From assembly GCA_012719355.1 (NCBI GenBank), contig JAAYAM010000183.1:1-56444 (forward strand): a stretch of DNA of 56,444 nucleotides, given 5' to 3'. Below, piece by piece: positions 6,324 through 19,852 of this stretch (positions are counted from its first letter, which is position 1; each line of letters starts with the position of its first letter). The position numbers and the translations under genes are program-made. The notes under the pieces were generated by a model that was not told the DNA's origin, searched no databases, and worked only from the letters and a program-made list of their open reading frames with translations. Source of the stretch: Acidobacteriota bacterium (GTDB lineage: Bacteria; Acidobacteriota; UBA6911).

Positions 6324-6466
6324 AGCGCTTCCAAAATAATACCTTACAGTCTTAATATCCAGTATTTAGAGAGAAAAGTCCGCGTTTCGTTTTCTGTGGG
6401 AGACAGCGGCTGCGTGGTTGGTTATTATCTGTGGCAATCTGTCACATTTTAATGGGAGCCCGATAC

Positions 6467-7372
6467 ATGAAGGAAATGCTCACCACCAAAGAAGTAGCGG
6501 AATATCTCAGCATCAACGAGAAACAGGTTTACAGGCTGATCAAGGACAGGAAAATACCCGCCACCAGGATCACGGGGAAGTGGCTGTTCCCCAAGAATCT
6601 GATCGATGAATGGATCATGATGAGCGCCAGGGAGAGTGTTGCGGCAGCGCAGAATCCGCTGGAAAGCCAGATGGTTATAGCAGGGAGCAATGACATAGCC
6701 CTGGAGCTGCTCATCAAGAACGCCAATCTGCAGTATCCCAACTACACGATTTCAGTTTCGAACGTCGGGAGTCTTGCCGGCATCGTGGCTCTCACGCACG
6801 GCAACTGCCATGTTGCGGCAGCACATCTTCTCGACCAGGAAACGGGGGAATACAACAGCTCTTTCATCAAGAAGCATTTTCCTGAACTGAAGATAGTGCT
6901 CCTGAACGTCGCGCACCGCGAGCAGGGGCTTATCGTCAAGAAAGGGAATCCCCTCGGGATAAAAGGTTTGACTGATCTGGCAGGCGGGAAATGTACCTTC
7001 GTGAACCGGCAGGACGGATCAGGCACCAGGGTCCTGCTCGATTACCGCCTGAAAGAGAATGGGATTGACCCGGCCGGGATCAAGGGCTACGACAGAATCG
7101 CCAACACTCATATGGAAGTTGGACTGGAGGTCTTCAGCGGATCGGCGGACGTGGGACTCGGGATCATGACCGTGGCAAAGATGCTCGACCTCGATTTCAT
7201 ACCGCTGACCACCGAGAGGTTCGATTTGATCATACCCACCGAAACCTACTCATCAGGGGCGGTCAAGGCGCTGCGCGAGGTCCTGAGTTCAAAGGAATTC
7301 AAATCCCACATAATCAAAATGGGCGGATATGAAACGCGCGATACGGGCAAGATAGTCTACGAGCGTGCCTAA
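6467..7372 (+). CDS. HTH (excisionase-type) regulator fused to a PBP-like domain
   Basis: 301 residues. Residues 1-50 form an excisionase/MerR-like helix-turn-helix (TTKEVAEYLSINEKQVYRL, with ITGKWLFP). Residues about 65-301 are a periplasmic-binding-protein-like domain of the type found with molybdopterin genes. Key blocks are SNVGSLAG, LLDQETGEYN, NRQDGSGTRVLLDY and SADVGLGI. The same domain forms the C-terminus of the MoeA fusion at 10627-12552. The protein probably senses molybdate, tungstate or a cofactor precursor and controls the adjacent oxidoreductase and moeA genes; this is inference from context. I chose the ATG at 6467 over the upstream 6431 because GGGAG lies 10 bases before it and the HTH begins just after it. 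Confidence 0.88.
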   Translation: MKEMLTTKEVAEYLSINEKQVYRLIKDRKIPATRITGKWLFPKNLIDEWIMMSARESVAAAQNPLESQMVIAGSNDIALELLIKNANLQYPNYTISVSNVGSLAGIVALTHGNCHVAAAHLLDQETGEYNSSFIKKHFPELKIVLLNVAHREQGLIVKKGNPLGIKGLTDLAGGKCTFVNRQDGSGTRVLLDYRLKENGIDPAGIKGYDRIANTHMEVGLEVFSGSADVGLGIMTVAKMLDLDFIPLTTERFDLIIPTETYSSGAVKALREVLSSKEFKSHIIKMGGYETRDTGKIVYERA

Positions 7373-7430: not shown

Positions 7431-9152
7431 TCAGACCTGGTGGACGCTGTCGATCTCTTCGGCCGGCACATCGAAGACGAACTGACCGGGCCCGAATTTC
7501 TCTTCCGTAAAGAATTCAGGCAGGCGGTCATCTTTCTCTGTAAATCCGGCAGCCTTGTTGAATCTCCTCTCGATTTCCAGCACTGATCTGCCGAGTTCCG
7601 TAATGTAGTGTTCGCTGTATTGCTCGCCCGTAACCGCCGAGAGGGCTGCAATCATGTTCTGTTCGGTCTCGACGACCTGCCGCTGTTCCATCATGGTCAT
7701 CCCAACCATCATACAGTACCCGAGTGTATCGACCGCAGCCATCCACTCCTGCATGAACCGCGATTCCGGAGCCTGGCCGGTCGAGTCGACCGGGCTGTAC
7801 TTCGGATGGTGAGGTCCGGGCAATACGATTCCCGCAGTATGGTCGGCGCCCATGGGGGAAGTTGCAAATGTAACGCCGGTCCCCTTCAGGATGCGCGGAT
7901 CGTAGGCCGAGAGAGCCTGCCCCTTCACATGAGGAACCCTCTTCACACCCAGTTTGTCACCTGTGAACTTCGCCCCGGATCCGATCATCCGGCCGTTTTC
8001 GGTCCCGGCGTTAATCTCCTCGACCAGCTTGAGGGCGCCCTCAGCATCTCCCCACGGCAGCAATCCGCCTTCCATCGCAACTGCCAGGGCGGAACCGACG
8101 TCCATGGTATCGACCCCGGCATCGTTGCAGGCCCGGTTGATGCGCGCAACCATGTCGAGATCACCGATGAGACAGTTCGACCCGATCAGCGCGATCGATT
8201 CATACTCAATGCTGGCCGTAACGAACTTGCCGTCATCGTCGGTGTACACATTGGAGCAGCTGATGATGCATCCCTTCATGCATGCATGAACCGTTGCGGA
8301 ATTCGGACGCTTCCTGAGCAACTCCTCCATGTATTCGCCCGAGATCTTCTCGGCCTGATCGAACTGGCCCATGGAGAAGTTTTTGGTGGGCAATGCACCG
8401 GCCGTCTGGGTGATCATGACGATCTGCGGCGTCCCCATGTGCCTCAGCCCCTGGGCGAAGTGATCTCCCAGAATGACTTTGTTGATAACGCCACAGCTCT
8501 CTTTCAGTTTGGCGGGGTCCTTAACCTCAACAAGATTCGAGCCCGTATCGTCGACGATGACGGCTTTCATCTTCTTGGAACCCATAACCGCGCCCAGACC
8601 GCCGCGTGCGGCAACCCTGAGATGGAAATCCGGCGTGGTAAACATGACGGACGCGGCAAGCAATTCCATGTCGCCGGCGGGACCGATGCAGCTTATGCAT
8701 GCGTTCTTCCCATATTTGTCCTTCAGCTTTTCGACGATTTCGTAGGAGCCGAGACCGGCGAGACCGGCGGCCGAAGTGAAACTGACTCCGTCTTTGGTGA
8801 TCTCAACCGTGGTCGGTTCGTTCGCCTTTCCTTCAAAAATGACTGCTTTGAGACCGAGGCGGGCAAGTTTCTGGCCCATTGCGCCGCCGGTATTTGCTTC
8901 TTTAATCCCGTTTGTCATCGGGCTTTTAGCGCCCACTGAAAGTCTTCCGCTGCATGGAGCGACGGTTCCGCCCATCAGTCCGGGCGCCCAAACCAGCTTG
9001 TTCTCAGCACCCAGAGGATCGCAGGTGGGAGGCACTTCCTTCTCAATGATGCAGGAAGTCAGTCCCCGACCTCCGAACTTGTTGTAATCTTCGGGAACCT
9101 CCTCGACACTCGATGTGCGTGTGGACAGATTAATCCTTAAGAGTTTAGCCAT
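7431..9152 (-). CDS. aor: Aldehyde:ferredoxin oxidoreductase (tungsten/molybdenum bis-pterin enzyme)
   Basis: 573 residues, typical for the AOR family, which oxidises aldehydes to acids with ferredoxin through a bis-pterin tungsten (or molybdenum) centre and one 4Fe-4S cluster. The N-terminal KLLRINLSTR, the FGGRGL block and the SGRLSVGAKSP region are family marks. Probable cluster cysteines are C291, C295, C299 and C480 (in DTLGYC). The spacing CX3CX3C differs from the CX2CX3C of the Pyrococcus enzyme. I placed the start at 9152 because AGGA precedes it and MAKLLRINLS is the family N-terminus; the 40 upstream residues are not. Neighbouring moeA genes and the PBP-type regulator fit a cofactor island. 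The aldehyde substrate is unknown. Confidence 0.93.
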   Translation of the reverse strand: MAKLLRINLSTRTSSVEEVPEDYNKFGGRGLTSCIIEKEVPPTCDPLGAENKLVWAPGLMGGTVAPCSGRLSVGAKSPMTNGIKEANTGGAMGQKLARLGLKAVIFEGKANEPTTVEITKDGVSFTSAAGLAGLGSYEIVEKLKDKYGKNACISCIGPAGDMELLAASVMFTTPDFHLRVAARGGLGAVMGSKKMKAVIVDDTGSNLVEVKDPAKLKESCGVINKVILGDHFAQGLRHMGTPQIVMITQTAGALPTKNFSMGQFDQAEKISGEYMEELLRKRPNSATVHACMKGCIISCSNVYTDDDGKFVTASIEYESIALIGSNCLIGDLDMVARINRACNDAGVDTMDVGSALAVAMEGGLLPWGDAEGALKLVEEINAGTENGRMIGSGAKFTGDKLGVKRVPHVKGQALSAYDPRILKGTGVTFATSPMGADHTAGIVLPGPHHPKYSPVDSTGQAPESRFMQEWMAAVDTLGYCMMVGMTMMEQRQVVETEQNMIAALSAVTGEQYSEHYITELGRSVLEIERRFNKAAGFTEKDDRLPEFFTEEKFGPGQFVFDVPAEEIDSVHQV

Positions 9153-9295
9153 TGGAATTCCTCGCACTGAATTATCATGTTCTTGACGTTGTCCACATAC
9201 CTCTGCGACTGAAGAGCAGACATCGTCGCTCCCACTATAAACGCATCTTTTGTCTTTTGCCACTGAAACCACACAGCCGGAAACCGAACTATGGC
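9153..9295. other. Divergent intergenic leader between aor and moeA
   Basis: About 140 bases that must hold the aor promoter, read leftward. A TATAGT-like box and a small hairpin (TCTGC/GCAGA) occur on the minus strand in the aor leader. Neither the Moco riboswitch pattern nor a ModE palindrome is seen. This is the likeliest operator region for the HTH-PBP regulator. Confidence 0.3.
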
Positions 9296-9357: not shown

Positions 9358-10593
9358 TTGACTGAATTCTTTCACGTTATCCCTCCTGATCAGTTCGTTG
9401 AGATGCTCGGCCGGTTTCCAAAGCTTCCGCCGGAGCCTGTCGGGTTGGACAAAGCCCTGAATAGAATTCTGGCTGAAGACATAATCGCTTCTGAAGATCT
9501 GCCCGAAGGAGCACGATCCACGGTAGACGGCTTTGCGGTTCGGGCCGAGGATACGTTCGGAGCTTCCGACTCCAACCCCGCCCTCCTGCGTGTCGTTGCT
9601 TCCATCCCGATGGGGATGATCCCCGATTTCACACTCGGTGCCGGAGAGGCGGCCCAGATACCGACGGGCGGCTTTCTCCCGTGCGGAGCGGACGCGGTCG
9701 TCATGGTGGAATATACAAACTCCACGGGTGCCGACGAGATCGAGGTGACGCGTCCCGTAACGATCAGAACGAACGTGCTTGAGCAGGGGGAAGACACCCG
9801 ATCGGGAGAAATCCTGGTGGCTGCGGGAAAAAGGTTGAGACCACAGGAAATCGGCTTTCTTGCCGCCCTGGGGGTTACCGAAATCCGCTCCTGCAGGCGG
9901 CCGAGGGTCGCGGTCATTTCTTCCGGCGATGAAGTGGTACCCTTTGACCGCACACCCGGCCCAGGCCAGATACGGGACGCCAACGGCCACGCCATCTCAG
10001 CCCTCGTTTCCGCCTGGGGCGGAAGTCCGCTGCAATTTCCTATTGTCCCCGACAACGCACAGGAAATGACCGTAACGGTCAAGAGCGCTCTCGCGCAGGC
10101 GGACGTCGTCACCTTGTCGGGAGGAAGTTCCGTCGGAACACGCGATCTCATGGTGGATGTTATATCCGGCCTTCCGGGCGTAGAAGTGTTCGCCCACGGT
10201 ATCGCGATCAGGCCGGGCAAACCAACGCTTCTGGCAGGCCAGGGAGACAAGCCGATTGTCGGCCTTCCGGGACATCCGGTCTCGGCCCTGGTCGTGGCGC
10301 AGGTGTTTCTTGCACCTCTCCTGCTGCACCTGCAGGGAGGGCAACTTCGTAAAGGACCGCCCGGCCGGCGCGGCAAGGCGGTGCTCGGAACCTCCGTTCA
10401 TTCGACGATAGGGCTGGAAGAATATGTGCGGGTACGACTCGAGGAGGGCGCCGGCGAAGATCCGACTGCTTACCCTGTCTTCGGGAAATCAGGAATGCTT
10501 TCCACTCTTGTAAAAGCCGATGGAATTGTCACTATCCCGATGAATGTCGAGGGATTCTCAAAGGGAGAGTCGGTCGAGGTCATCTACATCTGA
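9358..10593 (+). CDS. moeA: Molybdopterin molybdenumtransferase MoeA
   Basis: 411 residues, full length for MoeA, which inserts molybdate (or tungstate) into adenylylated molybdopterin. Family blocks run in order: STVDGFAVRAEDT, QIPTGG..PCGADAVVMVE, the MPT-binding domain with AVISSGDE, GGSSVGTRDLM, RPGKPTLLA and GLPGHPVSALV, then the small C-terminal beta domain. The start codon is TTG, supported by AAGGAGAG about 8 bases before it. A second moeA-like gene follows after 33 bases, almost certainly in the same transcript. Two MoeA proteins beside a tungsten-type oxidoreductase suggest separate metal or target duties, but the sequence does not say which handles which metal. Confidence 0.95.
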   Translation: MTEFFHVIPPDQFVEMLGRFPKLPPEPVGLDKALNRILAEDIIASEDLPEGARSTVDGFAVRAEDTFGASDSNPALLRVVASIPMGMIPDFTLGAGEAAQIPTGGFLPCGADAVVMVEYTNSTGADEIEVTRPVTIRTNVLEQGEDTRSGEILVAAGKRLRPQEIGFLAALGVTEIRSCRRPRVAVISSGDEVVPFDRTPGPGQIRDANGHAISALVSAWGGSPLQFPIVPDNAQEMTVTVKSALAQADVVTLSGGSSVGTRDLMVDVISGLPGVEVFAHGIAIRPGKPTLLAGQGDKPIVGLPGHPVSALVVAQVFLAPLLLHLQGGQLRKGPPGRRGKAVLGTSVHSTIGLEEYVRVRLEEGAGEDPTAYPVFGKSGMLSTLVKADGIVTIPMNVEGFSKGESVEVIYI

Positions 10594-10626: not shown

Positions 10627-12552
10627 ATGACTGCAAAACGAAAGACTTATCGTAAACTGAAACCGCTCAAGGAAGCGCAGGAGATCTTCTTCTCACGCTT
10701 CCGCGGCCTGACAATGGGTCCGGAAACCATTCCCGTGAGAAACGCGCTGGGTCGTCTGCTTGTGCACCCGGTGAAGGCCGCACGTTCGGTCCCGGCCTAC
10801 AATGCCGCTGCGGTGGATGGAATGGCCGTGCGCGCTGCAAACACGTTCTCGGCTTTTCCCGAGACGCCCGTCTGGCTGACGTTGGGGACCGATGCGGTAC
10901 AGGTCAATACCGGTGATCCTCTGCCCGGTTTCACCGACGCTGTCGTCATGATCGAGAAGGTCGAACTCTCGGAAGAGCGCTGCGAGATCCGAGAGTCCGT
11001 TTATCCCTGGCAGAACGTCCGCAAGACAGGAGAGGACATCGTCCGGGGAGAAATCCTCCTCCCGGCATACCATCGCATCCGTGCGTATGACCAGGGGGCG
11101 CTGATGGCGGCGGGAGTAATGACTGTAGAGGTGTTCCGGAAGCCGCGCGTCCTGATTATCCCCACAGGCGACGAAATCATCGCTCCCGAGGAAGCCGGCG
11201 AGTCGCTGCAGCCGGGCGTCATCCTGGAAGTCAACGGGCAGGTTCTCGCCTCGATGACCGCAGAATGCCATGCCGATGCCACGCTCGCGCCCACGGTGCC
11301 GGACGATCCGGAAAGGATCAAAGAAGCGATAACCTCCGGGCTGGAGGCAGGCTACGATGTGATCATGACTATCGCAGGCTCTTCCGCTGGTTCCGAGGAC
11401 TTTACGCCGACGGTTCTTTCCGGGCTGGGAGAACTGCTCGTGCACGGCGTAACGGTTATGCCCGGAAAGCCGACGCTGCTTGCGGCGGTTCACGACCGTC
11501 CCATCATAGGCGTCCCGGGATATCCGGTATCCGCTTTCGTCTCCTTCCGCGAGTTCGTGCGTCCGCTGCTTCACCAGATCCAGGGCCTGCAGCCGCCGGA
11601 ACCTGCAGAAGTCCGGGTTTATATGGGGAGGAAGCTTCCTTCGAAGCCGGGACTTGAAGAGCATGTCAGGGTCATCCTCGGCAAGGTGCGGGAACGGGTG
11701 ATCGCGATTCCGCTTGCAGGCGGCGCAGGCATGATGACGTCAATGGTGCGGGCGGACGGCATTCTCCGTGTTCCGCCGCAAATCAGCGGTTACTCTGAAG
11801 GAGAGGAGGCCAGCGTCGAACTCCTCACTTCTCATGACGCGCTTGGCGGCAGACTGCTCGCAATCGGTTCGCACGACCTGACAGTCGACCTCCTTGCCAG
11901 CCTTATAAAAGAACGTTCGGGAGGGGAAGTGACTATCTCGTCGAGCAACATCGGAAGCATGGGAGGCCTGCTTGCAGTCGACAAGGGAATTGCGCACTTT
12001 GCCGGGTCTCATCTGCTGGACGTGAACACGGGTGAATACAACACTTCCTACATACGCCGCTACGTCACAAGCACGCCGGTCGCACTGGTGACTCTCGTCC
12101 ACCGCTGGCAGGGGCTGATGATCGCAAGGGGGAATCCCAAGAAGATCACCGGTATCCCCGATCTGACACGCTCCGATGTCGCTTTCATCAATCGACAGCC
12201 CGGATCCGGCACCCGCATCCTTCTGGACTACGAACTCCAGAAAGCCGGCATTGATCCGAAGACCATAGGGGGCTACAGGAGCGAGGAGTACACCCACATG
12301 AGCGTCGCAATGGCCGTCACTTCCGGCCGCGCCGACGTCGGGCTCGGGATTCTCGCCGCCGCCAGGGCACTGGACCTGGACTTCATTCCGGTAGTACGGG
12401 AACGCTATGACCTTGTAATCCCCTCCGATCTGCTTGACGATCGACGGATCAGGCTTCTGCTCGATATAATCCGATCGCAGCAGTTCATTGACCAGGTTCT
12501 CGCGCTGGGCGGCTACGAGGTAGAGGAAACCGGCAAAATCCAGCCACAGTAA
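10627..12552 (+). CDS. moeA: MoeA fused to a C-terminal PBP-like domain
   Basis: 641 residues. Residues 1 to about 400 are a complete MoeA (AAVDGMAVRAANT, IIPTGDE, AGSSAGSEDF, MPGKPTLLA, GVPGYPVSAFVSF). Residues about 405-641 are a PBP-like domain close to that of the HTH regulator at 6467: both share SN-GS, HLLD..TGEYN, NRQ-GSGTR and ADVGLGI blocks and the LDLDFIP..ER ending. Such fusions are known; the PBP-like part may bind oxyanion or cofactor and report to, or feed, the MoeA part. In the glycine-rich motif AGSSAGSEDF the residue after S-S differs from the G-S-S-V-G-x-x-D of the first MoeA. It is cotranscribed with the upstream moeA. Role in metal selection is inference. Confidence 0.9.
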   Translation: MTAKRKTYRKLKPLKEAQEIFFSRFRGLTMGPETIPVRNALGRLLVHPVKAARSVPAYNAAAVDGMAVRAANTFSAFPETPVWLTLGTDAVQVNTGDPLPGFTDAVVMIEKVELSEERCEIRESVYPWQNVRKTGEDIVRGEILLPAYHRIRAYDQGALMAAGVMTVEVFRKPRVLIIPTGDEIIAPEEAGESLQPGVILEVNGQVLASMTAECHADATLAPTVPDDPERIKEAITSGLEAGYDVIMTIAGSSAGSEDFTPTVLSGLGELLVHGVTVMPGKPTLLAAVHDRPIIGVPGYPVSAFVSFREFVRPLLHQIQGLQPPEPAEVRVYMGRKLPSKPGLEEHVRVILGKVRERVIAIPLAGGAGMMTSMVRADGILRVPPQISGYSEGEEASVELLTSHDALGGRLLAIGSHDLTVDLLASLIKERSGGEVTISSSNIGSMGGLLAVDKGIAHFAGSHLLDVNTGEYNTSYIRRYVTSTPVALVTLVHRWQGLMIARGNPKKITGIPDLTRSDVAFINRQPGSGTRILLDYELQKAGIDPKTIGGYRSEEYTHMSVAMAVTSGRADVGLGILAAARALDLDFIPVVRERYDLVIPSDLLDDRRIRLLLDIIRSQQFIDQVLALGGYEVEETGKIQPQ

Positions 12553-12586: not shown

Positions 12587-14875
12587 ATGTCGGGTGCAAA
12601 ACGGAAACGCCGCAATTCCAAACGGCGAAGGAAATCGGACAGAAGGGCTTTTATCATCAAGCTCCTGCTGCTGCTCCTTATTGTCCCCATAATTGCAGTC
12701 GCCGCCTTCCTGACGCATTACTACTACGTCTTTGACGGCAATATCGAGATGAAACTGGGGAGGAAGCGACCTCCGGAGACGAAGATCTACAGCGCCCCGA
12801 CAGTCCTGTACCCCGGCAGGCCCGTAACCCTGCCTCAGCTGGAATCGAGCATACGCAAGCTCGGCTACAGGGAAGCACAAGGGCGGATGAAAGGCGCCCG
12901 GTACCGAGTCCTGGCGCCCAACCGCCTTCTTATCTGCAATGACGAGGCCCCGCCCCGCAAGGCCGACATCATCTTTTCCGGAGACACGATCCATTCAATC
13001 GAAGACCCGGACAGCGGACGCGAGCTGACGCGGTTTGCGCTGAAGCCGGAAGTGCTCAGCAACGCAATTGACAAGAACCGCGAGAAGCGCCGTCCCGTGT
13101 CATTTCACGAAATCCCTGAACACCTCGTCAATGCCGTCCTGGCTGTCGAAGACCGTCGCTTCTTTTCCCACAGTGGAATCGATCCCCTCCGCATCATTAA
13201 AGCGCTGATCGTCGATCTGCGCGAGGGCGAAACAGTCCAGGGGGCGAGCACACTGACTCAGCAGTTTGTGAAAAACTACTTCCTCACCCCTGAACGCACG
13301 TGGCGGCGGAAATTCGCCGACGCGTATATGTCTATCCTGTTGGAGAACAGGCTCTCGAAGAAGGAGATCTTTGAACTCTACAGCAATGAGGTCTATCTCG
13401 GACAGATCGGCACGTTCAGCATCGTGGGCTTCGGCGAAGCCGCAGATGCCTTCTTCGGCAAGAACATCAGGGATCTGAGCCTCGGAGAGGCGGCAACGCT
13501 CGCGGGAATCATCACAGCGCCCAACCGCCTCACGCCGCTGCGTTACAGCGACAAGGCGGCCTTGCGGCGCGATCGCGTGCTCGATGCCATGGCCGATTAC
13601 CGCATGATCACGCCATCAGAGCGCGACAGGGCGAAATCGCAGCCTCTCCTGGTACGCCACACGTCGATTCTGAATTACTCGGATGCGCCCTATTTCGTGG
13701 ACTATGTCCAGGAGCAGCTTATCCGCCGGCATGGAGACGGCGCCCTGGCGCGCTCGGAATACAGCATCTACACGACCCTCGACCCGGATCTTCAGCAGGC
13801 GGCCTATGAATCGATTCAGTCAGGCATGAAAGCAGTGGATGCCGAGGTCGGCAGAACCGGGAAAGCCCAGGTGGCCCTCATAGCGGTCGATCCCAGGAAC
13901 GGCCACATCCTCGCCATGGTGGGAGGAAGAAACTACGGCAACAGCCAGTTCAACCGGATCACTCAGGCACGAAGGCAGCCGGGAAGCATATTCAAGCCCT
14001 TCGTCTATGCCGCCGCACTCGAAACAGCTTACAGCGGCGGAACCCGGCTCACGACCGCTTCGACAGTAATCGACCAGCCGACACGATTCACCGACGGCAC
14101 CCGCGGCTACACCCCCAGGAATTTCAAGGACGTATACTACGGACAGGTGACGATGCGCCAGGCGATCACAAAATCGCTGAACGTCGCGACAATCAAGTTC
14201 GCGGAAAAGGCCGGCTTCGAACGGGTGGTGGCGCTTGCACGCAGGCTGGGACTCAACGAAAACATCAAGCCGTATCCTGCCATGGCTATAGGGAGTTTCG
14301 AAACCACGCCTTTTGAAATGGCGCAAGCCTACACTGCCTTTGCCAATGAGGGGCGGCTTTCGGAACTGACTCCGATAGTGAAGATCAGGGACCGGAACGG
14401 CCGACAGGTCTTCACCACAAAATCCGCACACCGGCAGGTGCTGACGCCGCAGGTCGCGTTTGTCGTCACCTCCCTGCTGCAGTCGGTCATGGATCACGGT
14501 ACAGGTTCCAGTGCACGCTCACGCGGTTTCCTCCTGCCTGCGGCAGGCAAGACCGGCACCTCTCGAGACGGATGGTTTGCCGGCTATACGCCGGATCTCC
14601 TCTGCATCGTTTGGGTTGGATTCGACGACAACAGGGAACTCGGGTTGTCCGGCTCTGAATCGGCGCTCCCGATATGGACCGAATTCATGAAAAGGGCATC
14701 CCGGCTCCAGCCTTTGTCGAAGCGGAACTTCACCGTCCCTAAGGGCGTCCGGGCAGTCGAGATCGATCCCGAGACGGGCCTGCCTGCGACGAAAAACTCT
14801 TCGCGAATAGAGACGCACTATTTCATCGAAGGGACAGAGCCGACGGCAACCGCGACGGCACCGGTCCTTCCCTAA
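12587..14875 (+). CDS. Class A penicillin-binding protein (PBP1-type transglycosylase/transpeptidase)
   Basis: 762-residue bifunctional peptidoglycan synthase. A basic cytoplasmic tail (1-21) precedes one membrane anchor (about 22-43). Residues about 65-165 resemble the UB2H-like domain of PBP1B. The GT51 domain follows, with catalytic E188 in AVEDRRFFSHSG and QGASTLTQQFVKN at 218-230. The transpeptidase has the SxxK serine at S467 (GSIFKP), SLN within ITKSLNVAT, and KTGTS. All active-site motifs are intact. The tail is rich in threonine and alanine. A short intergenic gap to the MoeA fusion suggests possible read-through, though function is unrelated. The ribosome binding site is weak (GAGTGA). 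Confidence 0.95.
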   Translation: MSGAKRKRRNSKRRRKSDRRAFIIKLLLLLLIVPIIAVAAFLTHYYYVFDGNIEMKLGRKRPPETKIYSAPTVLYPGRPVTLPQLESSIRKLGYREAQGRMKGARYRVLAPNRLLICNDEAPPRKADIIFSGDTIHSIEDPDSGRELTRFALKPEVLSNAIDKNREKRRPVSFHEIPEHLVNAVLAVEDRRFFSHSGIDPLRIIKALIVDLREGETVQGASTLTQQFVKNYFLTPERTWRRKFADAYMSILLENRLSKKEIFELYSNEVYLGQIGTFSIVGFGEAADAFFGKNIRDLSLGEAATLAGIITAPNRLTPLRYSDKAALRRDRVLDAMADYRMITPSERDRAKSQPLLVRHTSILNYSDAPYFVDYVQEQLIRRHGDGALARSEYSIYTTLDPDLQQAAYESIQSGMKAVDAEVGRTGKAQVALIAVDPRNGHILAMVGGRNYGNSQFNRITQARRQPGSIFKPFVYAAALETAYSGGTRLTTASTVIDQPTRFTDGTRGYTPRNFKDVYYGQVTMRQAITKSLNVATIKFAEKAGFERVVALARRLGLNENIKPYPAMAIGSFETTPFEMAQAYTAFANEGRLSELTPIVKIRDRNGRQVFTTKSAHRQVLTPQVAFVVTSLLQSVMDHGTGSSARSRGFLLPAAGKTGTSRDGWFAGYTPDLLCIVWVGFDDNRELGLSGSESALPIWTEFMKRASRLQPLSKRNFTVPKGVRAVEIDPETGLPATKNSSRIETHYFIEGTEPTATATAPVLP

Positions 14876-14954
14876 AGAGCCTGCCTCCATCAGCCGATAA
14901 CGCTGATGCGACTCAATGCTGGTGCAATTAGGCCGGCGGTCAGGATTATGTGCT

Positions 14955-17363
14955 ATGAGTGTCATCGACAGGTCGACGTTTCCTTCCGGTGATTTGCCAT
15001 CGGCCTTTCCGGAGTGCCTCCCGATACCGCCGGAGGCCGAAGAAATTCTCTCGCTCATCCTCGAGCAGCTTGAAGGTTTTCCCAGTCCTCAAAGAGGCGC
15101 CCTTCTTCTTTCCCGCGATCCTTCGACGGACAGGTCGGAGCTGCTGCGCTATCTGGCGCGCCTCCTTGAAGATCCGGATTCGCCGCACTGGACACCTCTT
15201 CTCCGGCGTCTGAACATCAGCGGAGACATGCGTCCGAAGGGCCCGGTCCGAACCCTCTTCATCCAGGTTCCGTTGGATCCGTCGATAGATCTGAGAAGCT
15301 TCTTTCTGGAAAACCTGTGGCAGGAAATCCCGGCGGATCCCACTTCGAACGAAGATGTGCTGTTGAGCAGGATGCGGCACGTCTCATCGGTGCTTGTGCG
15401 GCAGTCGCTGGGGCTCGTCGTGCTCGAGAAGATCTCCGACCGGATCCGCGGCATCAATGATGCGGCAAGGGTGCAGCAGGAACTGCTCGTATACAGGCTC
15501 TTTTTCGAGGCGTTCTCGCGGAGCGGAATCCTTACGGTCTTCACAGGAGAAAAGGAACATCTGAATCCGGAACAGAGGCAGTATGGCCCGCTTGAAGGCG
15601 TCGATACGCTCGAGCGCTGCTATTCCTGGATCGACTGTAGCGCCCACCCGAGTCCGCTCAGAATGAATGCGTCGCGGCAGGAAGAGGAGTTTCAGGGACG
15701 GCTTCAGTTGCTCGTCTACGACTGGATTCACTCGCGCGTCCCGTCATGGAAACCTGAGCACAGCCCGATATATCAACACGCATCGCGGGCCCTGACAGCA
15801 ACGCTTCCGGAAGGAGACCGGTCGGCAGCCGGCCTGGTCTATTTCAAAAGCGTTTCCGATCCGTACTGGTGTGAAGAAGACATCACAGGTTTGAAGCTCA
15901 CAGCTCCTCCCTGGGTACTGATGATTCTGAGCCCCTGCGAGCGTGTGTACGAATTTCAGAAGAAGCTGAAGGAACTCGTATCACTCCTTCCGGTCCTGCT
16001 CGTCTGGAGGCCTGCCACGCCTTCCAAGACGGAACTCGACACGCTCCGCAGCCTGGTGCTGAGCCTGTCACACCACGGGATTGAGCGAGACGCTGCGGCG
16101 GAGGAGTGTATTGCCAGGATCCGCCTGATTCTCTTCGATCTCTATATCAAACGGGGTTCCCTGGTCGACTGCACTGGTAAGTATTCCATCGATCCCACCG
16201 TTAAAGGAAAAGGGATCGGCAAACAGCTCTCGGCACGCCTGTCAGAGTTGTCGCAGAAAAGGCCTCGCGGGTCACAGCCGGTCAAGTCTGAAAGGGCGGA
16301 GGAGAACCGGCTCTGCAGATGGGCGACCCTCTTGACGAACATCCATTGCGCAGACGAAAGCAGCATCGAGCGGACAGGAGAGGACACGCTGAAATGGCTG
16401 ATCCAGTCGGCACGCGAGGTCGCGGAGAGAATCGCTGATCTGCCGGAGGACTTCAGGACGACACGCTTCTGGGGGCATATGAAGAGCATCATTGCCCCGT
16501 TGAGCCTGTTCGACAGCGCTTCACCAGCCATGACTGCGGGAAAGCTGTCTTTCGCAACAGCGGTCGATCACCTGGGACGCACCTTCAGCTGGCAGCCGGA
16601 GAGGCTGACGAACTGGAAGAGCGGACTGGCAAACCTGCTCGATCTGCTGCAATGGCTCCCATCCTTCGTCCTTGCGAGGGAGTACGTCACCGGCGCCTTC
16701 CCCCTGGGAGAGGATTGCGACCGGGCGCGCGAGGCGCTGCTGAAACGGATAGAGAATCCACAGGAGTTGCTGCAGACCGGGGAGCGAGCCCGTTTCGACG
16801 AGGAATTCCGTCAGTTCAGAGAAGCATACGCAACTTCCTATATCAGGCTTCATGAAAACACGCTCCGAATGGTGAGCGTGCTCAAGAAGGATGAGTGCAG
16901 AATCGATTTCGCAGCCTTGCGCAATCTGGAGCTTCTTTCAAAGCTTCAGTATATGGACAGAAGTTATCTGAACAAGGTCAAGCTCCTGGCGAAATGGATA
17001 CAGCGAAACAATTGCGGCATGCCTGTACAGCAGATCCTTAAGCTCCAGCCGCGCTGCTACTGCAGCTTCAATCCCTGCGGCCCTCAGAAGCTCACCGGTT
17101 CGGCGGCCGGAATCAACCGGTTGATCAACGAGGGCATCGAGTGCCTGCGGGGAACGCTTCGCAGGAGCGAACACCTGATAATGCCGGAGTTCAGCGACAC
17201 GGACGTCGAGGATGAGGTTCTGCGGCAGGTCTCGTCGCTGCTTGGCGACGGTCCGCTGGTTCCTTTGGAGGAAAAATCCATCACCGCGATCCAGAGAATC
17301 ATCATGAAACACCCCGGCCGGTTCAGAAGACAGAGCCTGGCTGCGTCCTCAAATCGTATTTGA
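14955..17363 (+). CDS. Large orphan protein resembling a decayed DUF6079/BrxC-type ATPase
   Basis: 802 residues; no confident family. The first third has the layout of DUF6079/BrxC-PglY P-loop proteins: a strand, LLLSRDPSTDRSELLRYL where a Walker A loop would be, a strand TLFIQVPL, and LGLVVLEKIS where Walker B would be. The Walker lysine and glycines are absent (STDRSELL against GTGKSHLL), so ATP hydrolysis is unlikely. The C-terminal third carries FREAYATSYIRLHENT and a cysteine cluster (CYCSFNPCG), also reminiscent of DUF6079 proteins. No signal peptide or membrane segment is seen. I prefer the ATG at 14955, with AGGA upstream, over 14916. No defence genes adjoin it, so a host role is possible. 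The family link is by eye only. Confidence 0.5.
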   Translation: MSVIDRSTFPSGDLPSAFPECLPIPPEAEEILSLILEQLEGFPSPQRGALLLSRDPSTDRSELLRYLARLLEDPDSPHWTPLLRRLNISGDMRPKGPVRTLFIQVPLDPSIDLRSFFLENLWQEIPADPTSNEDVLLSRMRHVSSVLVRQSLGLVVLEKISDRIRGINDAARVQQELLVYRLFFEAFSRSGILTVFTGEKEHLNPEQRQYGPLEGVDTLERCYSWIDCSAHPSPLRMNASRQEEEFQGRLQLLVYDWIHSRVPSWKPEHSPIYQHASRALTATLPEGDRSAAGLVYFKSVSDPYWCEEDITGLKLTAPPWVLMILSPCERVYEFQKKLKELVSLLPVLLVWRPATPSKTELDTLRSLVLSLSHHGIERDAAAEECIARIRLILFDLYIKRGSLVDCTGKYSIDPTVKGKGIGKQLSARLSELSQKRPRGSQPVKSERAEENRLCRWATLLTNIHCADESSIERTGEDTLKWLIQSAREVAERIADLPEDFRTTRFWGHMKSIIAPLSLFDSASPAMTAGKLSFATAVDHLGRTFSWQPERLTNWKSGLANLLDLLQWLPSFVLAREYVTGAFPLGEDCDRAREALLKRIENPQELLQTGERARFDEEFRQFREAYATSYIRLHENTLRMVSVLKKDECRIDFAALRNLELLSKLQYMDRSYLNKVKLLAKWIQRNNCGMPVQQILKLQPRCYCSFNPCGPQKLTGSAAGINRLINEGIECLRGTLRRSEHLIMPEFSDTDVEDEVLRQVSSLLGDGPLVPLEEKSITAIQRIIMKHPGRFRRQSLAASSNRI

Positions 17364-18695
17364 GCGGCTCGCATCGATCCACCCGCGATAGTCTCCCCCG
17401 TATCCGGCACGTCTCTGAAGATACTCAATTTTGGACAACAGCTCCGATACCCGTTGACGAGACGGCGGGGGCTGCAGTGAAAGCCGCCCGACGACCGCTG
17501 CCATCTTCCGCCTGGTTTCATCGGCGGCACCGGCAAAGACCTCTTCGTATCCGCTTGCGGCACCGGCAAGATACTGCTCGATCATGTACTGCGATACTGT
17601 CCTCCCGTGCCTGCGGGACACGAGGATGTTCCCTTTCCCGGTAACGGCATTTCCGATGACGAAGACTCGGTCCGATCCCTCCAGTTCCCCCGTTCTTTCG
17701 TCCTTCACCACGTACCGTTCTCCACTCATTGCGACACCGGGTATGGGTTCGGGGATACTGCCGATGGAACTGATGACCATCTGTGCCGGGACAGCATCTG
17801 CTGTCGATTCCGACACTACCGCACGTCCGTTTTCAATCCTGGTATGCGCCATTTTCAATCCGGTCAAATGACCTTTCTCTGCCATGAACCCGACCGGCGC
17901 CCGGAGGCTTTCGAACTTGAAGAGGTATTTGTCGGCGAAATTGTTGAGAAGCTTCCGCCGCGTAGCCTGCGCCTGCGCCTCTTTTTCGGGCGAAGCGTTG
18001 TCGGGCATTTCAGCGAGAGGCATGTCCTCGACACGGCGCCTGTAGTAGAGTGTGCAGCCCTTCAAACCCAGATCTTCCAGGGTGAGATTCATCCCCGTAA
18101 GAACCTTGCGACAACCATTCCGTTCGAGATCGAGAAGACTCACACGCTCCCCTCTCTTTTCCAGAGCGCGGCAGACGGTTTCGAGCATCAGGATCTTAAC
18201 GACATCAAGTGAAGCCAGGCCGCCGCCCACGACAATCGCCTCATCTTCCGGAACGTAGCGGGGCCCGTTGTAGCCCGATTCGAGGTAGTGGTTGAACCAG
18301 TACACAAACGAGTTCTGGTATACGAACCCTTTCCCGAGATATTGGTCTATCCCGGCGAGAGGAAACGTCCGATCTCTCCAGGCGCCGTTTGCAAGGATTA
18401 TGGCGCTTGGGTTCCAGCTTCGTATTTCATCGAGAGTCAGATCGCTTCCGAGCCGCGTACGGGGAATGAAGTGCACGCGCGGGTGGGTAAGCTTTTCATC
18501 AATCCTTTTTTCTTCCTGCAGCCGCAGGTCAACATGCCAGCGAGGCAGACCGTCTTCGATCTTGCCGTAGGGACGATCATGCTGTTCCATCACTGCACAG
18601 GTTACACCGCGGCTTGCAAGCTGGAAGGCGGCTTCAGAGCCCGCTACAGCTCCTCCAACGATGAACACGACATGGTCCGACCGGGCATCAGTCAT
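17349..18695 (-). CDS. GltD-like FAD/NAD(P)-dependent oxidoreductase
   Basis: 448 residues with two dinucleotide-binding motifs: an N-terminal VFIVGGAVAGSEAAF for FAD and IVVGGGLASLDVVK near residue 160 for NAD(P). A late block, VFVIGNAVTGKGN, is the usual C-terminal FAD contact. Overall it resembles the small subunit of glutamate synthase and related NADPH:acceptor reductases but lacks their N-terminal 4Fe-4S domain. The tail (about 370-448) is variable. The start at 18695 is supported by AAAGGAG; the longer reading frame to 18797 has no support. Its last 15 bases overlap the convergent orphan gene. Partner and substrate are unknown; there is no gltA-type gene nearby. Confidence 0.8.
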   Translation of the reverse strand: MTDARSDHVVFIVGGAVAGSEAAFQLASRGVTCAVMEQHDRPYGKIEDGLPRWHVDLRLQEEKRIDEKLTHPRVHFIPRTRLGSDLTLDEIRSWNPSAIILANGAWRDRTFPLAGIDQYLGKGFVYQNSFVYWFNHYLESGYNGPRYVPEDEAIVVGGGLASLDVVKILMLETVCRALEKRGERVSLLDLERNGCRKVLTGMNLTLEDLGLKGCTLYYRRRVEDMPLAEMPDNASPEKEAQAQATRRKLLNNFADKYLFKFESLRAPVGFMAEKGHLTGLKMAHTRIENGRAVVSESTADAVPAQMVISSIGSIPEPIPGVAMSGERYVVKDERTGELEGSDRVFVIGNAVTGKGNILVSRRHGRTVSQYMIEQYLAGAASGYEEVFAGAADETRRKMAAVVGRLSLQPPPSRQRVSELLSKIEYLQRRAGYGGDYRGWIDASRSNTI

Positions 18696-18783
18696 GTCCA
18701 CACTCCTTTCTCTTCCTGAGTTTATGATTCGGCTTACGGTGGTGCAAGATCCCTGGGGGCGGGGCAGCCGCAATTGAATTCTG

Positions 18784-18789
18784 TATAAT
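18784..18789 (+). promoter_or_regulatory. Probable -10 box for the O-methyltransferase gene
   Basis: A perfect TATAAT stands 62 bases before the ATG at 18851. No matching -35 box is seen at 16-18 bases. GGGAG at about 18837-18841 is the ribosome binding site. Confidence 0.4.
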
Positions 18790-18850
18790 ATTTGCATGGA
18801 TATCGTTACCCTGAACTCTTAACACGGAAAATCCCTGGGAGACATGGACG

Positions 18851-19852
18851 ATGGCTATTAATGACGGAATCGATGCCGGAAAGATACTTGGTTTGGTGCA
18901 GGGCTTCATGGAGAGCAGAATCCTGCTTTCAGCAGCTGAGCTGAACATCTTCACCCTCCTGGAAACCGGGCCCATGACCGCCCCGGAAATTGCGCACAGG
19001 ATCGGAGGCGACCTCAGGGGGGTGGCCGCCCTGCTCGATGCCGTCGCGGCCATGGGATTATTGGAAAAAGAAGGGGGTCGTTACCGGAATGACAGCTCCA
19101 TTACCAGGCTGCTTTCCGAGAGTTCTCCGGAGTCCGTTCTCCCGATGGTTCTTCATATGGCCTCTCTCTGGACACGGTGGTCCCATCTTACCGAAATCGC
19201 CAGGAGGGGGGACGAGGCCAGACAGGAGTTTCACTTTACCCGCAATCCCGATGAATTGCGTGCCTTCATCGGAGCGATGCACGCAATAGGAGCTCCTTTG
19301 GCCAGAAAGATCGTTTCCGCCGTGAAGCCTGGAGAGGCGAAGGCCCTGCTCGACATTGGAGGCGGATCGGGGACATACACGATTGCGTTTCTGAATGCCG
19401 CGCCGCAGATGAAAGCGACGCTGTTCGATCTGCCGGAGGTCATCGAGATGGCCCGGGAGCGTCTCGAGAGTGAAGGGCTGCTCGACCGGGTGAGGCTCGT
19501 CTCGGGCAACTACAACGAAGACGAACTGCCCGGCGGACATGATCTCGTTCTGCTTTCCGCAATAATTCACTCGAACAGCCTCGATGAAAACCGGGAGCTC
19601 TACCGGAAGGCCTTCCGCGCGCTGAACCCGGGAGGCCGGATCCTGATCAGGGATCATGTCATGGATCCCGAAAGGATCCGCCCCGGAAGCGGTGCGATCT
19701 TCGCCGTCAACATGCTGGTGGGAACCTCCGGCGGCGGTTCATACACATACGAAGAGATCGCCGACGGCCTCTCCGGCGCAGGTTTTGACAAGACGAGGCT
19801 TCTCGTACAGGGGGACAACATGGACGCGGTTGTGGAGGCGTTCAAGCCCTGA
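18851..19852 (+). CDS. SAM-dependent O-methyltransferase (family 2, ASMT-like)
   Basis: 333 residues. An N-terminal winged-helix dimerisation domain (about 10-100, with ELNIFTLLETGPMTAPEIA) is followed by the Rossmann methyltransferase domain. The SAM loop is LLDIGGGSGTY near residue 170; ATLFDLPEVI and GGRILIRDHV are further family blocks. This is the arrangement of plant-type and bacterial family-2 O-methyltransferases such as acetylserotonin or hydroxyneurosporene methyltransferases. The usual catalytic histidine would sit in LLSAIIHSNS. The substrate is not predictable. The 3' end overlaps the convergent aminotransferase gene by 11 bases. Confidence 0.88.
   Translation: MAINDGIDAGKILGLVQGFMESRILLSAAELNIFTLLETGPMTAPEIAHRIGGDLRGVAALLDAVAAMGLLEKEGGRYRNDSSITRLLSESSPESVLPMVLHMASLWTRWSHLTEIARRGDEARQEFHFTRNPDELRAFIGAMHAIGAPLARKIVSAVKPGEAKALLDIGGGSGTYTIAFLNAAPQMKATLFDLPEVIEMARERLESEGLLDRVRLVSGNYNEDELPGGHDLVLLSAIIHSNSLDENRELYRKAFRALNPGGRILIRDHVMDPERIRPGSGAIFAVNMLVGTSGGGSYTYEEIADGLSGAGFDKTRLLVQGDNMDAVVEAFKP

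What the first reader, a model, noticed from the sequence alone, without database searches (positions are those of the whole stretch)
14955..17363. Orphan DUF6079/BrxC-like protein that has lost its Walker A motif
The order of strands and helices, the position of STDRSELL where GTGKSHLL would be, a VVLE strand where Walker B would be, and a C-terminal cysteine cluster resemble BrxC/PglY-type ATPases of phage-defence systems. Yet the catalytic residues are gone and no brx or pgl gene is near. It may be a tamed defence protein or an unrecognised new family. The reading frame is intact over 2.4 kb, so it is probably under selection.
Basis: inference. Interest (0 to 1): 0.6.

Follow-up and report, generated by a model that had tools for sequence, protein, structure and literature searches.

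The report
ATPase-dead BrxC relative behind PBP1B
In an acidobacterium, a relative of the phage-defence ATPase BrxC has lost its ATP-binding machinery but kept its tail domain, and it sits directly behind a cell-wall-building enzyme gene rather than among defence genes, which suggests that this protein family has a second, non-defence role linked to the cell envelope.

Summary
The 802-aa ORF at 14955-17363 is a degenerate member of the BrxC/DUF6079 family. Its Walker A is gone (GERGVGKT in the nearest intact relative, RDPSTDRS here), Walker B is changed (LDN to LEK), and about 245 aa covering the AAA+ lid and first winged helix are deleted. The same-family relative G011 keeps an intact 1040-aa version; its model matches solved BrxC structures best (Foldseek E 1.6e-7). 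In all 9 homologue-bearing genomes of this acidobacterial family, and in all 4 of a second distant family, the gene lies directly downstream of a PBP1B-type class A penicillin-binding protein. The window genome has no other DUF6079 gene and no PglZ above cut-off. Within the family the protein shrinks: 1040 aa with Walker A, 802 (this one), 575-587, 366-429, and absent in three sister genomes that keep the synteny. By parsimony the ATPase part changed at least three times and the alpha+beta domain four; every remaining copy keeps the C-terminal coiled coil with an H...C-x13-C-x-C site. Best reading: an ATP-independent scaffold from a non-BREX, chromosomal branch of the BrxC family, associated with PBP1B. 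Kinship and erosion are shown; the cell-wall role is inferred.

The parts
12587..14875 (+). PBP1B-type bifunctional class A penicillin-binding protein (UB2H, transglycosylase, transpeptidase), the conserved upstream partner gene
   Evidence: Pfam Transgly 2e-58, Transpeptidase 1e-31, UB2H 4e-5; directly upstream in all 13 family f1 and f26 loci
14955..17363 (+). BrxC/DUF6079-family protein without a catalytic ATPase site, 802 aa (alternative in-frame start 14916)
15033..15572 (+). Remnant of the AAA+ (ORC/Cdc6-type) P-loop core, aa 27-206
   Evidence: 27.7% identity to G011 aa 35-220; modelled as a P-loop-like core with strands 49-53, 99-104, 152-158, 193-198 at pLDDT mostly about 90
15114..15137 (+). 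Position of the lost Walker A: RDPSTDRS (aa 54-61) against GERGVGKT in G011 and GDRGVGKT in family f26
15414..15431 (+). Position of Walker B: LVVLEK (aa 154-159) against LVLDN in G011 and ILLDD in f26
15573..15677 (+). Junction of the internal deletion: about 245 aa (G011 221-465; last AAA+ strand, lid, first winged helix) are missing
   Evidence: alignment coordinates; low-confidence linker 208-238 in the model
15678..16262 (+). Alpha+beta domain corresponding to the BrxC central domain
   Evidence: about 32% identity to G011 466-690; domain scheme from PMC12839542
16287..17339 (+). C-terminal coiled-coil domain, the only part kept by every homologue of the family
   Evidence: (26 invariant columns), model pLDDT mostly above 85
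16851..17063 (+). Putative metal site: His633 (16851-16853), Cys687 (17013-17015), Cys701 (17055-17057), Cys703 (17061-17063)
   Evidence: Near-invariant over 50 family members; C-x13-C-x-C spacing fixed outside BREX; all four lost together in one lineage

Best explanation
The gene is a member of a chromosomal, non-BREX branch of the BrxC/DUF6079 family of Acidobacteriota, placed behind a PBP1B-type cell-wall synthase gene. In this bacterial family the ancestral AAA+ ATPase module is being discarded lineage by lineage, and the window shows an intermediate stage: a catalytically dead, partly deleted AAA+ core in front of an intact alpha+beta domain and C-terminal coiled coil. SHOWN: homology, loss of the catalytic residues, graded and repeated domain loss, constant retention of the C-terminal domain, conserved PBP linkage in two distant families. 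INFERRED: the retained C-terminal domain works without ATP as a dimerising, metal-stabilised cytoplasmic scaffold that helps position or regulate the PBP1B synthase encoded with it, much as the C-terminal ~80 residues of BREX BrxC dimerise without ATP. NOT SHOWN: physical contact with the PBP, metal binding, expression.
For: Intact same-family homologue G011 with Walker A, whose model's top six PDB matches are all BrxC (9zll, 9zdx). PBP directly upstream on the same strand in 9 of 9 f1 and 4 of 4 f26 loci (1 bp apart or overlapping by 19 bp in f26) and in none of the 37 loci of other families examined, three of which are BREX-type. C-terminal domain with H/C/C/C kept in every copy while the AAA+ part changes at least 3 times and the alpha+beta part at least 4 times on the tree. 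A single ATPase loss excluding G011 is rejected on the PBP tree (AU p 0.018). Purifying selection: full-length f26 copies dN/dS about 0.07-0.10; in f1, dS saturated with 33-53% identity kept. Within f1 the gene is never found without that PBP, while three genomes keep the PBP and lack the gene. No membrane-like segment, so probably cytoplasmic. ATP-independent dimerisation by the BrxC C-terminus: PMC13326643.
Against: The gene is missing altogether in three sister genomes, so it is dispensable. In f1 the C-terminal domain evolves about twice as fast as the PBP (dN 0.54 v 0.27 for window-G008), whereas in f26 the two are about equal; the window copy has the longest branch of its group. Full-length relatives in other families have no PBP neighbour, so the link is not family-wide. 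In G014 a 2.3-kb insert separates the two genes. No direct evidence of interaction, metal or expression.
Confidence: 0.42

Rival explanations
1. Decaying relic. The family f1 copies are remnants of a formerly useful ATPase on the way to loss; the C-terminal domain merely decays last and under weak selection, and the PBP linkage is inherited gene order.
For: Graded shrinkage ending in complete loss in G003, G005 and G006 with otherwise kept synteny; about two-fold faster evolution than the PBP in f1 but not in f26; window copy on the longest branch.
Against: Every copy has an open frame, and the cut always removes the N-terminal side cleanly, with the new start 10-92 bp from the PBP stop in five genomes. 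The same C-terminal domain with all four H/C residues is kept in four genera although synonymous sites are saturated.
Confidence: 0.3
2. The protein has its own function (for example DNA or nucleoid binding through the BrxC-like alpha+beta and coiled-coil parts) and the PBP gene is only a transcriptional neighbour.
For: Full-length relatives in other families sit beside other genes (M48 peptidase, DUF2520, FUR, LptE); in G014 the C-terminal ORF survives 2.3 kb away from the PBP; BrxC binds DNA, regulated by ATP (PMC13326643, abstract).
Against: The same PBP subtype is the neighbour in two distant families, overlapping or 1 bp apart in f26; the candidate DNA-binding alpha+beta domain is the one lost repeatedly.
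Confidence: 0.2
3. It is still a defence protein: a dead AAA+ decoy or regulator acting in trans with BREX or another system.
For: Family kinship to BrxC; some f1 genomes (G005, G012) carry separate DUF6079 plus PglZ loci.
Against: The window genome has no other DUF6079 match and no PglZ above cut-off; no BREX gene in the window; BREX BrxC of the phylum forms a separate, long-separated branch; no relative found in viral contigs by a pattern scan.
Confidence: 0.06

Closest known systems
BrxC / PglY of BREX (DUF6079, PF19557; PDB 9zll, 9zdx)
   Same: AAA+ ORC/Cdc6-type N-terminus, alpha+beta domain, C-terminal coiled coil, His plus three Cys in the coiled-coil part; the intact relative G011 matches the BrxC structures best
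   Different: No Walker A, altered Walker B, lid and both winged helices missing, CxC in place of the CxxC seen in BREX type III BrxC, no BREX genes, PBP1B neighbour
Full-length non-BREX DUF6079 proteins of other acidobacterial families (e.g. L052, L056-L060, L065-L068, L073, L075-L086, L091)
   Same: Same C-terminal domain with C-x13-C-x-C; no BREX genes recognised among the neighbours annotated
   Different: 1150-1290 aa with intact Walker A; neighbours such as M48 peptidase, DUF2520, FUR or LptE rather than a PBP
BrxB (inactive AAA+/STAND-like partner in BREX)
   Same: An ATPase fold kept after loss of catalysis, acting as a structural part (PMC12839542, PMC13326643)
   Different: Not tested as a homologue; different size and architecture; here the dead fold belongs to a BrxC homologue outside BREX

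Membership tests
BrxC/DUF6079 protein family | Sequence homology to the family | tested here: met
   Weak directly, secure through the relatives G011 and f26
BrxC/DUF6079 protein family | N-terminal AAA+ domain with Walker A and B | tested here: not met
   Fold remnant present, catalytic residues lost, lid deleted
BrxC/DUF6079 protein family | Winged helix after the ATPase and a second one after the alpha+beta domain | tested here: not met
   G011 221-465 absent from the window protein; the stretch for the second is also missing in G011 when aligned with f26
BrxC/DUF6079 protein family | C-terminal coiled coil | tested here: met
   Helices 446-800, mostly high pLDDT; 26 invariant columns across f1 and one f26 member
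BrxC/DUF6079 protein family | Structure similar to solved BrxC | tested here: inconclusive
   Met for the intact relative G011 (E 1.6e-7); the window model gives only weak AAA+ matches (E 0.06 and above)
BREX defence system | PglZ and PglX/BrxX encoded nearby | tested here: not met
   No BREX hit among 40 window ORFs; no PglZ above cut-off in the genome
BREX defence system | Phage restriction and site-specific methylation | not testable with these tools
   Needs experiments
PBP1B-associated protein | Gene linkage to a class A PBP conserved across lineages | tested here: met
   13 of 13 loci in two families
PBP1B-associated protein | Physical or functional interaction with the PBP | not testable with these tools
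   No complex prediction or experiment available

The most novel reading that the evidence does not exclude
The BrxC/DUF6079 family has a chromosomal, non-defence branch working in the cell envelope of Acidobacteriota (PBP1B partner in two families; envelope-related neighbours such as LptE or an M48 peptidase in others). Its indispensable part is not the ATPase but the C-terminal H-C-C-C coiled-coil module, which in family f1 was repeatedly set free as a small ATP-independent regulator of a cell-wall synthase.
Probability: 0.3. Interest if true: 0.78.

Novelty: new variant of a known kind. Interest (0 to 1): 0.55.

Why it matters
BrxC is known as the core ATPase of BREX phage defence, and its C-terminal half is poorly understood. 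A branch outside BREX, tied to a cell-wall synthase and repeatedly stripped to the C-terminal module, would show what that module does on its own, would mean that a DUF6079 hit alone should not be called BREX, and offers a natural deletion series across one bacterial family.

Tried and rejected
Single-sequence genome-contig scan: no relatives, too divergent; an alignment-based scan was needed. Solved-structure search by sequence: nothing useful (the coiled-coil matches at E 0.09 and above are chance). Plasmids: no match. Viral contigs: none. The idea that the short relatives are frameshifted halves of full-length genes was rejected: no AAA+ remnant lies between the PBP and the short ORF by tblastn. 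The motif GKGIGKQ at aa 418 was considered as a displaced P-loop and rejected (no S/T, not conserved). PADLOC mad2, mad1 and MTase hits in the window: mad2 and MTase fall on the methyltransferase fold of 18851-19852, generic; the mad1 hit was not traced. A single ancestral loss of the ATPase is rejected on the PBP tree (p 0.018) but not on the C-terminal tree alone (p 0.25). PBP branching inside genus g1 is unresolved, and holding g1 together is weakly rejected there (p 0.027), so exact loss counts are provisional. Two Pfam calls failed on wrong coordinates and were repeated.

Full report
OBSERVATION. The + strand ORF 14955-17363 (802 aa; in-frame start also at 14916) is intact. An AGGA stands about 10 nt before ATG 14955, and codon-position GC is gene-like along its whole length. 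Direct family hits are weak: PADLOC BrxC E 1.7e-4 over aa 585-731, Pfam DUF6079 E 0.0017 and below cut-off, no NCBIfam hit. A search of 60 relatives found homologues in nine other genomes; the window is contig C103 of genome G000, and matching contigs of the relatives are named Acidobacteria MAGs, one of them gp18.

KINSHIP. The relative G011 (same family) carries a 1040-aa version with GERGVGKT at residue 62. The window protein aligns with it at aa 27-206 (27.7%) and 242-793 (32%), and G011 221-465 is missing. Where Walker A should be stands RDPSTDRS (K to R, glycines lost); where Walker B should be stands LVVLEK against LVLDN. AlphaFold2 with a 50-row alignment gives pLDDT 82.4 for the window protein, with a remnant P-loop-like sheet, an alpha+beta domain and a long C-terminal helical region, and 84.7 for G011. 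The six best PDB matches of the G011 model are all Acinetobacter BrxC (9zll, 9zdx; best E 1.6e-7), followed by TnsC and Cdc6/ORC proteins. The window model itself gives only weak AAA+ matches, as expected for a truncated core. Published BrxC architecture is AAA+ (ORC/Cdc6), winged helix, alpha+beta, winged helix, coiled coil (PMC12839542); DUF6079 is the profile that matches BrxC best (same paper).

CONTEXT. In all nine f1 loci and all four f26 loci the gene follows a PBP1B-type class A PBP on the same strand: gaps of 10-254 bp in f1, except 2.3 kb in G014 where an insert with other ORFs intervenes; a 1-bp gap or a 19-bp overlap in f26. None of the 37 homologous loci from other families of the phylum (three of them BREX-type) has that neighbour in the stretch examined. 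Those loci have an M48 peptidase divergently upstream and DUF2520 and FUR downstream in family f29, an LptE gene overlapping or abutting the DUF6079 stop in lineage g81, and others. True BREX type III BrxC also occurs in the phylum (L087, L089: about 1800-2100 bits to PADLOC BrxC, with PglXI beside both and BrxF confirmed beside L087) and forms a separate, long branch on the tree. The window genome has one DUF6079 match, this gene, and no PglZ above cut-off; G005 and G012 have separate loci with both DUF6079 and PglZ. No BREX gene was found among 40 window ORFs.

EROSION SERIES. Lengths in f1: G011 1040 (Walker A), window 802 (dead remnant), G012 587 and G001 575 (no AAA+), G007 429, G014 389, G013 379, G010 at least 368 (contig end), G008 366 (C-terminal domain only). 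In G003, G005 and G006 the MoeA-PBP-DegT order is kept and the gene is gone. On the C-terminal tree the AAA+ segment changes state at least three times and the alpha+beta domain at least four; a single loss leaving G011 outside is rejected with the PBP alignment (p 0.018) but not with the C-terminal one (p 0.25). In the f1 survey the gene is never found without the orthologous PBP: nine genomes have both, three have the PBP only, three lack both (two of these incomplete).

THE KEPT DOMAIN. His633, Cys687, Cys701 and Cys703 are near-invariant over 50 members. Outside BREX the spacing is C-x13-C-x-C; BREX type III members have a CxxC version at the same place, and the g81 lineage has lost all four residues together. 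This is what a single metal site would look like (inference). In BREX BrxC the last 80 residues dimerise the protein with or without ATP (PMC13326643).

SELECTION. Full-length f26 copies: dN/dS about 0.07 and 0.10. In f1 synonymous sites are saturated or nearly so while C-terminal identity stays 33-53%; dN is about twice that of the PBP, whereas in f26 the two proteins are about equally conserved. Constraint is therefore present but looser in f1, and the window copy is on the longest branch. This leaves the relic rival alive.

MECHANISM. Committed reading: an ATP-independent, probably dimeric and metal-stabilised cytoplasmic scaffold associated with PBP1B (about 0.4). Shown: kinship, dead ATPase, domain loss, linkage, retention of the C-terminal domain. 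Inferred: dimerisation, metal, PBP contact, cell-wall role. No paper on DUF6079 outside BREX-type contexts or beside a PBP was found in the held library.

LIMITS.

Noticed in passing
L066, L073, L076, L078-L086, L091 and others (family f29): A full-length, Walker-A-positive DUF6079 gene with conserved synteny (divergent M48 peptidase; DUF2520, FUR and further genes downstream) in many genomes of one acidobacterial family, looking like a vertically inherited chromosomal gene rather than an island.
   Followed up: partly
L062:3263-3865 and L063:3222-3812: An LptE (LPS-assembly) gene overlaps or abuts the stop codon of DUF6079 in lineage g81 (two large replicons, perhaps Chloracidobacterium), whose DUF6079 has lost the H/C/C/C site.
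   Followed up: partly
L020:4149-4757, L055:3377-3973, L052:10762-11322: Small proteins of about 190-200 aa with a signal-peptide-like start, encoded directly after full-length DUF6079 and overlapping or abutting its stop; no significant Pfam match.
   Followed up: partly
L064, L069-L072, L074: A second group of about 1005-1045-aa DUF6079 proteins, present as extra copies in families f39 and f70, forming its own clade with other neighbours.
   Followed up: no
window 6431-7369, 9358-10590, 10627-12549: Two MoeA-type genes, one fused to a PBP-like substrate-binding domain, and an HTH plus PBP-like domain protein, next to an aldehyde ferredoxin oxidoreductase on the other strand (7431-9272).
   Followed up: no
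window 17349-18797 and 18851-19852: An oxidoreductase and an O-methyltransferase sit between this gene and the DegT aminotransferase in the window genome; relatives with the DegT gene in place (L012, L014, L015, L017) lack them there.
   Followed up: partly
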